Positions 11,841-14,561 of a stretch of DNA of 14,561 nt are shown one piece after another. Both the position numbers and the translations under genes were made by a program. Origin of the DNA: an uncultured Nocardioides sp. (GTDB lineage Bacteria > Actinomycetota > Actinomycetes > Propionibacteriales > Nocardioidaceae); assembly GCF_946885725.1 (NCBI RefSeq), contig NZ_CAMPGZ010000101.1:1-14561 (forward strand), read 5' to 3'. The notes under the pieces are model-generated. The model made no database searches. It saw only the letters and a list, made by a program, of their open reading frames with translations, and had not been told where the DNA came from. Position 1 is the stretch's first letter. Each line of letters begins with the position of its first letter.

Positions 11841-12557
11841 TCAGGCCGAGGCGGGGTCGCGTCGCCGGCGGGAGACGACGAGGTAGCCGCCGGCGCCGAC
11901 GAGGAACGCACCGACGAGCGGGACCCAGGGCCGCACGTCGTTGCCGGTGAACGGCAGCAACCCTTCGACGCCGGCCACGCCCGCGTCCCCGTCGCCCTCT
12001 CCGTCGGCGGTCGCCTCGACGCCGAGCACCTCGGTGTCCGAGTCCAGGTCGGCGCTGGCGTCGACGCGCAGTGCGAAGTCCACGCGGTCGGTCATGGTGT
12101 CGTTGCCGGCCTCGATTGGTAGCTCGACCCGCACGGTCAGCGGCAGTTCGCTTCCGGCTGGCATGGAGTCGGCGACCAGTGCGCCGTCGTCCGCGAGGTC
12201 CCGCATCTGGCCCTGCCAGAGCAGCGACCCGTCGTGCTCGACCGAGACGCGCAGCCAGGCCGAGAGCTCACCGCCGGCGTCGTCGCAGGTGACGTCGCCG
12301 TCACGGGTCTCCTGGGGCAGGCAGCCGTTCTCGTCGTCGGCGAGATCCTGGACCCGGAGCGTGACGTCGGCGTCGTGGCTCGAGCCGTTGCTGACGAGGA
12401 CCTCCGCCGACCCGCCGTACCCGGGGGCGAGCCGCTCGAGCCGCAGCCCGCCGCCCGGGATGTCGACGTCGATGCCGGCGGTGGCCTGCGCGGCGGGCGC
12501 GGCGAGCAGGATCGCCGCGGGCGCGAGCAGAACGGCAAGTCGACGACGGAGGTGCAC
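11841..12557 (-). CDS. LPXTG cell-wall-anchored protein, TasA/camelysin-like
   Basis: A 238-residue exported surface protein. It has a signal peptide (basic HLRRR, hydrophobic core to about 20, cleavage near AQA at 23-25 or ATA at 25-27). Next is one domain of about 145 residues. The C-terminal sorting signal is LPFTG at 201-205, a membrane helix at about 210-228 and the basic tail SRRRRD; sortase would link it to peptidoglycan. The domain shows features I recognise from actinobacterial TasA/CalY-like proteins: LVSNGSSHDADVTLRV, ENGC...VTC (Cys79 and Cys91, a probable disulfide), GGELS, and LP-x-x-AGN before DRVDFALRV. TasA and camelysin form fibres or are surface metalloproteases in Bacillus; a role here is inference. 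An acidic Gly-rich linker precedes LPFTG. GTG 12557 is chosen because it directly precedes the signal peptide; its ribosome binding site is weak. Confidence 0.85.
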   Translation of the reverse strand: MHLRRRLAVLLAPAAILLAAPAAQATAGIDVDIPGGGLRLERLAPGYGGSAEVLVSNGSSHDADVTLRVQDLADDENGCLPQETRDGDVTCDDAGGELSAWLRVSVEHDGSLLWQGQMRDLADDGALVADSMPAGSELPLTVRVELPIEAGNDTMTDRVDFALRVDASADLDSDTEVLGVEATADGEGDGDAGVAGVEGLLPFTGNDVRPWVPLVGAFLVGAGGYLVVSRRRRDPASA

Positions 12558-12602
12558 GCAGTCAGTCTTCGGGCGGTGCAGCGGGCGGGCATCACCAGAA
12601 TC

Positions 12603-12642
12603 GATGAAAACAGTTGTGCGGGGCGCTTCCCTCGCGCACACT
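12603..12642 (+). promoter_or_regulatory. WhiB7-style promoter for the ABC-F gene
   Basis: TTGTGC (12614-12619) and CACACT (12637-12642, keeping the A2 and T6 of TANNNT) are separated by exactly 17 bases. An A/T-rich patch, GATGAAAA (12603-12610), ends 3 bases before the -35. WhiB7-dependent promoters in actinobacteria are known for an A/T-rich motif just upstream of the -35, and ABC-F resistance genes belong to that regulon. The predicted transcription start is about 12648-12650. The match is by eye. Confidence 0.5.
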
Positions 12643-12698
12643 GGTCCGGCCATGAAGAGCTGACCCCGTCCTCCCTCGCGTCCGCGGCCCCAGTGTGC
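12636..12698. repeat. 9-bp inverted repeat spanning the ABC-F -10 and leader
   Basis: GCACACTGG (12636-12644), which contains the -10 hexamer, is perfectly complementary to CCAGTGTGC (12690-12698). GGCC at 12648-12651 and 12686-12689 can extend it past a 3-base bulge. The three-codon ORF lies in the loop. If transcription starts at about 12649 the left arm is not in the RNA, so this would matter only at DNA level or for a longer transcript. Confidence 0.5.
12652..12663 (+). CDS. Three-codon upstream ORF (leader peptide MKS)
   Basis: ATG AAG AGC TGA encodes Met-Lys-Ser and starts 2-4 bases after the predicted transcription start, so it would be read as a near-leaderless ORF. It lies 95 bases before the ABC-F start and just upstream of two competing hairpins. 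Short leader ORFs control several resistance ABC-F genes by letting drug-stalled ribosomes change leader folding. Any 3-codon ORF can occur by chance; its placement is the argument for function. Confidence 0.42.
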   Translation: MKS

Positions 12699-12731
12699 CC
12701 AATGTGCCCGGCGAGGGATCGCATCTCTCGC
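12672..12731 (+). promoter_or_regulatory. Candidate attenuator with two mutually exclusive hairpins
   Basis: The segment GCGAGGGA (12711-12718) can pair perfectly with TCCCTCGC upstream (12672-12679, 31-base loop). It can also pair with TCTCTCGC downstream (12724-12731, 5-base loop, one G-U). The two 8-bp helices cannot coexist. The downstream hairpin ends 3 bases before the GGTGG ribosome binding site (12735-12739), and the upstream arm starts 8 bases after the leader ORF stop, within reach of a ribosome at that stop. There is no T run, so control of translation, or a factor-assisted terminator, is more likely than a classic terminator. Function is inferred. Confidence 0.45.
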
Positions 12732-12746
12732 ACCGGTGGTTCGCTC

Positions 12747-14387
<1,641 letters not shown>

Positions 14388-14430
14388 CGATGAGCTGATC
14401 GCGTCGAGCGGCGAACGTTCAGTGCGTCGT

Positions 14431-14436
14431 TAGATT
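14431..14436 (+). promoter_or_regulatory. -10 element for the secreted-protein gene at the window end
   Basis: TAGATT fits TANNNT and is followed by about 57 bases of untranslated leader. No clear -35 is seen at 17 bases, so an alternative sigma factor or an activator is possible. The 112-base gap after the ABC-F stop holds this element and the hairpin below, but no convincing terminator for the ABC-F gene. Confidence 0.4.
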
Positions 14437-14469
14437 CCGGGGGGCAACCGGGCTGACGAATCCGACACT

Positions 14470-14482
14470 GCGGCTTCGCCGC
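14470..14482 (+). other. Small GC hairpin in the leader before the last gene
   Basis: GCGGC and GCCGC pair across a 3-base loop (TTC), 5 bases before the AAAGGGGA ribosome binding site. It could stabilise the 5' end of the message or modulate initiation. Such short GC hairpins are frequent in DNA of this composition. Confidence 0.3.
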
Positions 14483-14499
14483 TCGACAAAGGGGATTTC

Positions 14500-14561
14500 A
14501 TGAACAGCAAGCTCATCAAGGGCAGCCTGGCCGGCGTCGCCGCCCTCGCCCTCGCCGCCGG
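14500..14561 (+). CDS. Start of a secreted protein (3' end outside window)
   Basis: Only 20 codons are visible: ATG, then NSKLIKG followed by an Ala/Leu/Val-rich stretch, the start of a Sec signal peptide. AAAGGGGA (14488-14495) ends 4 bases upstream, an excellent ribosome binding site that fixes the start. Too little is present to name a family. It runs in the same direction as the ABC-F gene but has its own promoter candidate, so it is probably a separate unit. Confidence 0.8.
   Translation, partial: MNSKLIKGSLAGVAALALAA

What the first reader, a model, noticed from the sequence alone, without database searches (positions are those of the whole stretch)
12652..12746. Candidate drug-sensing attenuator: tripeptide leader ORF plus mutually exclusive hairpins before an ABC-F gene
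The leader of this resistance-type ABC-F gene has a 3-codon ORF (MKS) almost at the predicted transcript start. An 8-base element (12711-12718) can pair either upstream (12672-12679) or downstream (12724-12731), right before the ribosome binding site. A ribosome terminating on the tiny ORF would reach the upstream arm, whereas one held at its start codon would not. Drug-arrested initiation could therefore favour the upstream helix and free the ribosome binding site. So short a leader would mean sensing ribosome occupancy rather than a nascent-chain sequence. Pairings are read directly; the mechanism is inference, and leader-ORF control of ABC-F genes is established for other members.
Basis: partly seen in the sequence, partly recalled or inferred. 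Interest (0 to 1): 0.72.

Follow-up and report, generated by a model that had tools for sequence, protein, structure and literature searches.

The report
Leaderless micro-ORF switch before ABC-F gene
A three-codon mini-gene at the very start of the messenger RNA of a ribosome-protecting resistance gene looks like a drug sensor: its own letters pair with and hide the resistance gene's start site until a stalled ribosome sits on it.

Summary
In detail: ATG-AAG-AGC-TGA lies at 12652-12663, and 12711-12718 can pair both ways. Relatives change the interpretation. I assigned a 3- or 5-codon ORF, 7-10 nt after a -10-like hexamer, in 52 of 60 distinct ABC-F loci from several actinobacterial families. 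The upstream hairpin (P2) covaries, and a covariance model built without the window finds it there (57.4 bits). Model hits lie before ABC-F genes: 39 of 39 at E up to 3.1e-9 in one order-level scan, 16 of 16 new ones at E up to 0.001 in two others. Cognate pairs beat swapped pairs (z about -9; -6 after de-duplication); none of seven control segments shows a gain. P2 starts at +21 to +24 from the AUG for both ORF lengths, just beyond a published +16 toeprint. Best reading: translational attenuation, a drug-arrested ribosome on a nearly 5'-terminal AUG covering the anti-RBS strand. Tripeptide ABC-F leaders are known; this looks like a new variant. Transcript start and drug response are untested.

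The parts
12607..12642 (+). Promoter-like region: A-run 12607-12610 just upstream of a -35-like TTGTGC (12614-12619) and a -10-like CACACT (12637-12642); WhiB7-type arrangement
   Evidence: for the bases; logo anchored on the uORF ATG; A/T run of 3 or more at -50..-41 in 46 of 52 leaders versus 1-7 of 52 in four other 10-nt stretches, but TTG at -41..-35 in only 24 of 52; WhiB7 AT-hook preference for AT-rich DNA upstream of -35 from passages of PMC10245118
12649..12651 (+). Predicted transcript start and 5' UTR of about 3 nt (leaderless or nearly so); inferred from promoter spacing, not mapped
   Evidence: 9 nt between -10-like hexamer and ATG here, 7-10 nt in the leaders with a clear TANNNT hexamer; C at -4, A at -3, C at -1 in 83-87% of 52 leaders, though the window itself has G at -3
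12652..12663 (+). Mini-ORF (uORF) ATG-AAG-AGC-TGA, Met-Lys-Ser
   Evidence: same MKS* in L084 and L085; 3-codon or 5-codon uORF in 52 of 60 distinct loci (curated)
12657..12668 (+). 5' strand of long-range helix P1 (end of codon 2, codon 3, stop and following bases), anti-RBS
   Evidence: 11 pairs with 12734-12746; cognate-versus-swapped test
12734..12746 (+). 3' strand of P1: Shine-Dalgarno-like region up to the ABC-F start codon
   Evidence: 12734-12736, 12738-12741 and 12743-12746 pair with 12657-12668; RBS bases paired to the 5' segment with mean probability 0.74 in the free leader
12672..12679 (+). P2 5' arm, TCCCTCGC, at +21 from the uORF AUG
12680..12710 (+). P2 interior: 3-nt bulge, inner stem CG-c-GGC / GCCCG (12683-12688 with 12706-12710), variable apical part
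   Evidence: inner pairs 95.4% paired, almost invariant in sequence; for the window pairs
12711..12718 (+). P2 3' arm, GCGAGGGA
   Evidence: double-sided changes at three pairs of the outer helix
12724..12731 (+).
12747..14387 (+). ABC-F gene, 546 aa, nearest curated model TlrC/CarA/OleB/SrmB (NF000171, 418.5 bits, below its cut-off of 800)

Best explanation
A translational attenuator whose sensor is a 3-codon uORF at the 5' end of the transcript. Without drug, the leader folds into one long imperfect hairpin: P1 (uORF and the bases after its stop, paired with the ABC-F Shine-Dalgarno region and the bases just before its start codon) closes on P2, so the ABC-F start is hidden. The uORF has about 3 nt before its AUG, too few for a Shine-Dalgarno site, so ribosomes would load as on a leaderless mRNA. 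A drug that arrests ribosomes at the start codon or in the first steps (lincosamide, streptogramin A or pleuromutilin type) keeps a ribosome parked over about +1 to +16. That covers most of the P1 5' strand, so P1 opens and the ABC-F RBS is free. P2, fixed at +21 to +24 from the AUG, begins just beyond the parked ribosome and acts as spacer, nucleus for P1 and possibly roadblock. An AT-rich box upstream of the -35 region suggests that WhiB7 also switches the promoter on under ribosome stress. SHOWN by sequence comparison: uORF, P1, P2, their spacing, promoter geometry, association with ABC-F genes. INFERRED: transcript start, uORF translation, drug arrest, induction, WhiB7 control.
For: uORF: in 52 of 60 distinct loci with ABC-F homology of 300 bits or more (three duplicate rows set aside) I assigned a 3-codon (20) or 5-codon (32) uORF; peptides vary (MKS, MKN, MKL, MRN, MDN, MEL, MWN, MWI, MWIQD and others), which points to occupancy. 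P1: cognate uORF:RBS duplexes average -15.2 against -11.8 kcal/mol when swapped, 0 of 20000 permutations as low; 21 and 15 clusters give z -6.2, and none of seven control segments (promoter, coding, both P2 arms) shows a gain (z -1.2 to +4.7). W-type uORFs (25) pair -10.7 with their own RBS and -8.0 with L-type RBS, L-type (5, one clade) -13.2 and -7.8. 16 new CM-found loci plus 2 weaker ones: z -2.5, p 0.006. P2: 96% of cells paired, 21 cells with double-sided changes against 3.9 in shuffles, 0 of 500. Spacing: P2 at +21..+24 in 47 of 47 leaders where it was located, both uORF lengths, although uORF length changed at least twice on the tree; +21..+25 in 16 of 18 later leaders. Specificity: 39 of 39 hits at E up to 3.1e-9 in 293 genomes lie directly before the ABC-F gene; 16 of 16 new hits at E up to 0.001 in two further scans likewise. 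Folding: blocking 5' end..+16 opens the RBS in 40 of 52 leaders, mean 0.31 to 0.44; control block no change. 69 of 70 leaders have at least half of the P1 pairs within +1..+16 and 65 of 70 cover the SD zone. Precedent: VmlR uORF(MIN) toeprint at +16 and need of uORF translation (PMC9226507 passages); [quoted passage not shown]
Against: No expression, toeprint or TSS data for any of these leaders. In the folding model a ribosome at the uORF stop opens the RBS almost as much (mean 0.41) as one at the AUG (0.44), so folding alone does not single out start arrest. 4 of 52 leaders go the wrong way (L002, L003, L009, L118), 8 barely move, and the window's own gain is small (0.30 to 0.40). Individually P1 is only moderately better than a shuffled uORF segment (mean z -1.26; 13 of 52 below -2; window -1.76). 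Clustering to 4 or 2 clusters leaves little or no power (median p 0.04 and 0.5). P2 is lost in the blocked equilibrium fold of the window, L084, L098 and L090, of eight leaders printed, so P2 as a constant element rests on co-transcriptional folding. P2 is not universal: the model finds nothing in 7 of 10 genomes searched, among them those of L009, L010 and L014, which have a uORF. Further pair types of P2 do not exceed shuffles (272 of 500). A -35-like TTG is in place in only 24 of 52 leaders. Ordinary uORF translation would also open P1 briefly, so the off state must be leaky. uORF and start codons were chosen by me, not by annotation.
Confidence: 0.72

Rival explanations
1. One reading: 12711-12718 alternates between an upstream and a downstream hairpin, and an initiating ribosome favours the upstream one, freeing the RBS.
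For: Both pairings exist in the window; the upstream one is conserved.
Against: Downstream helix has no conservation signal (47 leaders, z +0.58) and is only weakly matched in the nearest relative; equilibrium folding of the window moves opposite to the prediction when the 5' end is blocked; the downstream hairpin (12711-12731) does not contain the RBS.
Confidence: 0.06
2. Transcription attenuation: P2 (or P1+P2) is a terminator or pause hairpin, or the leader is a Rho target, and the uORF ribosome controls read-through, as in lmrC, vmlR and are5sc.
For: Most characterised ABC-F attenuators act at transcription, at least in part (PMC12421871, PMC10201436, PMC8546547 passages); P2 is a GC-rich stem.
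Against: No U-tract: 1 of 50 leaders scanned has 5 or more T in 8 nt just after the located stem, and no terminator-like site was called in the window. P1 covers the SD zone in 65 of 70 leaders, which termination would not need. tiaA appears to be a translational case.
Confidence: 0.14
3. Translational coupling without drug sensing: any ribosome on the leaderless uORF opens P1, so expression simply follows leaderless initiation; the drug link comes only from the WhiB7-type promoter.
For: AT-rich box upstream of the -35 region in 46 of 52 leaders; a ribosome at the stop codon opens the RBS nearly as well; leaderless transcripts with small ORFs are common in mycobacteria (PMC4633059 passages).
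Against: P2 keeps register with the AUG and not with the stop, and the uORF stays at 3-5 codons; neither is needed for plain coupling. Tripeptide uORFs of other ABC-F genes do sense drugs.
Confidence: 0.12
4. Nascent-peptide sensing: the MKS/MKN/MRN peptide itself arrests with a macrolide-type drug.
For: Many 3-codon peptides carry K or R at position 2; the protein's nearest NCBIfam model is TlrC/CarA/OleB/SrmB, macrolide self-resistance proteins by recall.
Against: D, E, W, L, V at position 2 and a derived 5-codon class with the same spacing.
Confidence: 0.05

Closest known systems
VmlR uORF(MIN) and CplR uORF(MR[I/M]) attenuators of Bacillus and Clostridioides
   Same: Three-codon uORF before an ARE ABC-F gene, start-stage arrest by lincosamide/pleuromutilin/streptogramin A shown or proposed, SD of the ABC-F gene sequestered; MDN is a natural vmlR variant and occurs here (L006, L175) (passages)
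   Different: Longer leaders (vmlR 219 nt, cplR 212 nt) with an intrinsic terminator, and for vmlR a proven SD of the uORF; here leaders are 52-123 nt in the 52-leader set, no U-tract terminator was found, the uORF is predicted nearly at the 5' end, and the uORF region itself is the anti-RBS strand
are5sc (MLV) and tiaA leaders of Streptomyces coelicolor
   Same: Actinobacterial ABC-F, tripeptide uORF in are5sc, toeprinted start-codon arrest by LSAP drugs; tiaA appears translational
   Different: 5' UTRs of 232 and 194 nt with uORF ribosome binding sites, are5scL1 with a native TTG start (PMC12421871 section 7 and passages); called ARE5 there
Leaderless small ORFs of mycobacteria (for example the cysteine-rich uORF before cysA2)
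   Same: Leaderless uORF upstream of the regulated gene in Actinomycetota
   Different: Proposed to respond to cysteine by codon content (PMC4633059 passages); no link to drug or to uORF:RBS pairing in the passages I saw
One-hairpin translation attenuators of chloramphenicol resistance genes (cat-86, cmlA; recalled, not looked up)
   Same: Arrested ribosome masks the left arm of the stem that hides the RBS
   Different: Longer leader peptide with its own SD and arrest at a specific internal codon (recalled)

Membership tests
Ribosome-mediated attenuators of ARE ABC-F genes with tripeptide uORF | Conserved very short uORF upstream of an ABC-F gene | tested here: met
   52 of 60 distinct loci; 18 further leaders, of which L165 and L185 have GTG starts and L185 is less sure
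Ribosome-mediated attenuators of ARE ABC-F genes with tripeptide uORF | Leader can fold so that the RBS is paired and a ribosome on the uORF would disrupt it | tested here: met
   By computation only: P1 tests; folding (RBS opens in 40 of 52 leaders, closes in 4)
Ribosome-mediated attenuators of ARE ABC-F genes with tripeptide uORF | Drug-induced ribosome arrest on the uORF and induction of the gene | not testable with these tools
   Needs toeprinting or reporters
Transcription attenuators (lmrC, vmlR, are5sc) | Intrinsic terminator between uORF and gene | tested here: not met
   none in 12300-14561; 1 of 50 leaders with 5 or more T in 8 nt after the located stem; Rho-dependent termination not tested
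Leaderless uORFs | Transcript starts at or within a few nt of the uORF start codon | tested here: inconclusive
   Promoter spacing fits (7-10 nt from -10 to ATG); no mapped 5' end
WhiB7 (WblC) regulon promoters | AT-rich stretch just upstream of the -35 element | tested here: met
   A/T run in 46 of 52 leaders, with the caveat that a -35-like TTG is in place in 24 of 52; criterion from passages of PMC10245118
WhiB7 (WblC) regulon promoters | Activation by WhiB7 | not testable with these tools
   Needs a whiB7 mutant or binding data
TlrC/CarA/OleB/SrmB ABC-F proteins (NCBIfam NF000171) | Score above the curated cut-off of 800 bits | tested here: not met
   418.5 bits: a homologue, not a member by that rule
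Known Rfam RNA families | Match to a covariance model | tested here: not met
   0 matches at gathering in the window; 0 at E up to 1 in 12600-12800

The most novel reading that the evidence does not exclude
The smallest drug sensor of its kind: a leaderless 3-codon uORF whose own letters are the anti-RBS strand, so that a single 70S ribosome parked on a 5'-terminal AUG is the whole sensor, with P2 held at a fixed ruler distance from the AUG. The nearly invariant P2 core (GUCCGcGGC..GCCCG), conserved beyond what pairing needs, would be a further recognition element, for instance a roadblock at the mRNA entrance or a binding site for the ABC-F protein or another factor. The same uORF:RBS complementarity in Streptomyces-type leaders with aromatic-rich uORFs (13 of 15 such loci used, z -3.1 after correcting two start codons) would make it an actinobacterial principle.
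Probability: 0.45. Interest if true: 0.74.

Novelty: new variant of a known kind. Interest (0 to 1): 0.62.

Why it matters
It defines a conserved RNA element, without a match in the Rfam copy searched, placed before a ribosome-protection-type gene in several actinobacterial families. It ties three themes together: leaderless initiation, drug arrest at the start codon, and a WhiB7-type promoter. Because the uORF has so little to it (3 codons, no room for an SD site, variable peptide), it offers a clean test of whether ribosome occupancy alone can be the signal, and of how leaderless initiation responds to peptidyl-transferase drugs. The covariance model and the AUG-to-P2 ruler give direct, testable predictions.

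Tried and rejected
P2 3' arm or 5' arm pairing with the RBS as the conserved switch: no cognate signal. Two coding segments pair less with their own RBS than with others' (z +4.7 and +2.2). Intrinsic terminator: no U-tract. Known Rfam element: none. P2 as an element shared by many genes: in 396 phylum-wide genomes 6 hits at E up to 0.01, of which G001 and G541 (L129) are before ABC-F genes and the other four have no ABC-F match in the DNA fetched; of the 5 weak hits in the order-level scan only G201 (L165) lies before an ABC-F gene. One of those without, G141, scores E 4.3e-4, so at E up to 0.001 that scan gives 40 of 41 before ABC-F genes. A second hit in G694 (E 0.003, partial) was not examined.

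First MAFFT alignment A1 (41 of the 48 leaders listed; L102, L105, L109, L111, L116, L118 left out as near-copies, L119 for its divergent P2) misplaced the window's 3' arm, so A2 (35) was built without the window, L003, L093, L094, L097 and L106; the window then served as an outside test.

Rows dropped: of 63 rows, L081-L083 are duplicates; of the remaining 60, L008, L012, L120, L123 and L125 have no short ATG uORF, L013 went to the Streptomyces set, L025 and L127 were not assigned. For P2 offsets L003, L010 and L014 were set aside (automatic stem not P2) and L009, L126 had no stem. In one search the stem finder gave other stems for L174 and L180; L185's uORF (GTG start) is one of two possible readings. 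In the Streptomyces set (L015 and L025 not used) two main starts were first mis-assigned (z -1.6, p 0.055) and corrected (z -3.1, p 0.001), after seeing the first result.

Literature: nine searches ran. None of the listings I saw showed a leaderless tripeptide uORF before an ABC-F gene or uORF:RBS complementarity of this kind; most subscription papers and preprints are not covered and supplements were not read. Papers were seen as passages or one section, none whole.

Full report
WHAT IS THERE. The window carries at 12747-14387 an ABC-F gene of 546 aa, nearest to the TlrC/CarA/OleB/SrmB model of NCBIfam (418.5 bits, below the cut-off of 800). The finding's coordinates and pairings are correct. 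No whole genome is held for the window, so relatives were reached through one scan of genome contigs (the best 80 loci kept) and through genomes of those loci.

THE MINI-ORF IS CONSERVED. Upstream regions show, a few bases after a -10-like hexamer, an ATG followed within 3 or 5 codons by TGA. Of 63 rows with ABC-F homology of 300 bits or more, 60 are distinct; 52 were assigned a uORF and curated by hand together with the main start: 20 with three codons (MKS 3, MKN 4, MRN 3, MWI 2, MEL 2, and one each of MKL, MDN, MWN, MKI, MLL, MVF) and 32 with five (MWIQD 17 and others). The closest relative, L084 (86% identical protein), has MKS as well. The peptide is variable, the position is not.

PROMOTER. 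Anchored on the uORF ATG, the 52 upstream regions show an A-rich box at about -48 to -44, a G/T-rich -35-like stretch, and a TAGGCT-like -10, with 7-10 nt to the ATG where the hexamer is clear. A/T runs of three or more occur at -50..-41 in 46 of 52 leaders and in 1-7 of 52 in four other stretches; TTG at -41..-35 in 24 of 52. WhiB7 prefers AT-rich DNA upstream of the -35 (passages of PMC10245118). The spacing predicts a transcript start about 3 nt before the ATG: leaderless or nearly so, with no room for a Shine-Dalgarno site. This is inference; no 5' end is mapped.

On 35 leaders without the window, 12 pairs: 96% of cells paired, 21 cells with double-sided changes against 3.9 in shuffles, covariation score 0.165 against 0.060, 0 of 500 shuffles as high; further pair types show no excess. 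A covariance model from these finds the window at 12648-12719 with 57.4 bits, E 3.5e-12. In 293 genomes of the order of Nocardioides sp. YR527, 45 have the ABC-F at E up to 1e-110; the model gives 44 genomes with a match at E up to 0.01, of which 39 (E up to 3.1e-9) lie on the same strand directly before that gene (compared). Of the five weak ones, one (L165) lies before another ABC-F gene with a GTG-start three-codon uORF; the other four have no ABC-F match nearby. The six ABC-F genomes without a match: L120, L123 and L125 have no uORF, L127 a different one, and L126 and L119 keep a uORF and P1. Two more order-level scans, which overlap each other (249 and 200 genomes), give 18 distinct genomes at E up to 0.001, two of them in the seed; the 16 new ones are all before ABC-F genes by tblastn and were assigned three-codon uORFs, one with GTG start. 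A phylum-wide sample of 396 gives 6 hits, two of them before ABC-F genes. In ten genomes of loci the model hits three (those of L002, L005, L011) and misses seven.

THE RULER. P2 starts at +21 to +24 from the uORF AUG in 47 of 47 leaders where it was located, 15 with three codons and 32 with five; the distance from the stop is 8-11 nt in the first class and 2-5 nt in the second. On a protein tree uORF length changed at least twice, including a return to three codons in L092, and the AUG distance was kept. Two changes are few, but the direction is clear: the structure is in register with the start codon. Of 18 later leaders 16 give +21..+25 and two gave another stem. The published toeprint of an initiating subunit on the vmlR uORF is 16 nt from the A of AUG (PMC9226507 passages), so P2 begins just beyond a parked ribosome.

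HELIX P1 (new). The segment +1..+22 of each leader is complementary to its own ABC-F RBS/start region. Examples: L098 ATGTGGATCC with GGATCCGCAT; L090 ATGCTGATCC with GGATCAGCCAT; L119 TGACGACGC with GCGTCGTCA; L007 GACACCACCGA with TCGGTGGTGTC. In the window 12657-12660 and 12662-12668 pair with 12743-12746 and with 12738-12741 and 12734-12736. Test: cognate duplex energies average -15.2 kcal/mol, swapped -11.8 (sd of the permuted mean 0.36), 0 of 20000 permutations as low. After clustering, 21 and 15 clusters give z of about -6.2; coarser clustering to 4 or 2 clusters gives median p 0.04 and 0.5 and has little or no power. None of seven control segments (three promoter, two coding, both P2 arms) shows a gain for cognates; the two coding segments are weaker with their own RBS. 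W-type and L-type uORFs each pair better with their own class of RBS. The 18 leaders found later give z -2.5, p 0.006; 14 after de-duplication z -2.3, p 0.012. Of 70 leaders, 69 have at least half of the P1 pairs within +1..+16, 65 cover the SD zone and 41 touch the start codon. Against a shuffled uORF segment single leaders are only moderately special (mean z -1.26).

FOLDING. With 5' end..+16 blocked these become 0.00, 0.01 and 0.84. Over 52 leaders the mean unpaired probability of the RBS (-14..+2) rises from 0.31 to 0.44, up in 40 and down in 4; a control block leaves it at 0.31; a ribosome at the stop codon gives 0.41. Folding thus supports opening by a uORF ribosome but does not decide between arrest at start and at stop, and equilibrium folds lose P2 in four of the eight blocked leaders printed.

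MECHANISM. Shown by comparison: uORF, P1, P2, ruler, promoter geometry, association with ABC-F genes. Inferred: transcript start, leaderless initiation, drug arrest, opening of P1, higher ABC-F synthesis. The likely inducers are drugs that arrest at the start codon, because such arrest is shown or proposed on other ABC-F tripeptide uORFs (PMC12421871 section 7; PMC9226507; PMC10201436 passages), because P1 lies under a ribosome at the AUG and because the peptide varies. Translational rather than transcriptional control is favoured by the missing U-tract and by P1 covering the RBS.

NOVELTY. Tripeptide uORFs of ABC-F genes are established (MIN, MR[I/M], MK[L/Q], MLV). Leaderless small ORFs are common in mycobacteria (PMC4633059 passages). 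What I did not find in nine paper searches is the combination: apparently leaderless micro-uORF, uORF body as anti-RBS strand, and an AUG-anchored hairpin. I rate it a new variant of a known kind.

Noticed in passing
L013, L016, L019-L024, L026-L030 (Streptomyces and relatives): More distant ABC-F genes have leaderless-looking uORFs rich in aromatic and hydrophobic residues (MAFLFFV, MAFFYFL, MGSYYFFR) whose first codons are complementary to the gene's RBS (13 leaders, z -3.1).
   Followed up: partly
L165 (G201): A GTG-start three-codon uORF with P2 and an 8-bp P1 precedes a different, only 42% identical ABC-F gene.
   Followed up: partly
L174 (G923): The position of the ABC-F start codon reads ATT where relatives have ATG, after a strong P1.
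   Followed up: no
window 12683-12710 and relatives: The inner part of P2 (CG-c-GGC / GCCCG) is almost invariant in sequence, more than pairing requires.
   Followed up: no
window 12636-12644 and 12690-12698: A 9-base inverted repeat GCACACTGG / CCAGTGTGC joins the -10-like region and the P2 apical part; the first arm should not be transcribed if the predicted start is right.
   Followed up: no
L120, L123, L125 (G102, G037, G023): ABC-F homologues in genomes of 8 million bases or more lack the uORF and sit behind what reads by eye as the end of another ABC-F gene.
   Followed up: no
L084, L086, L104, L122: The search marked one in-frame stop codon inside the matched frame in four relatives; place and reality not examined.
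   Followed up: no
L093, L094: The apical part of P2 contains tandem copies of an 11-base unit, three in L093 and two in L094.
   Followed up: no
first coding bases of the 52 ABC-F genes: Coding segments +9..+30 and +31..+52 pair less with their own RBS than with those of other leaders (z +4.7 and +2.2), as if cognate pairing from that side were avoided.
   Followed up: no
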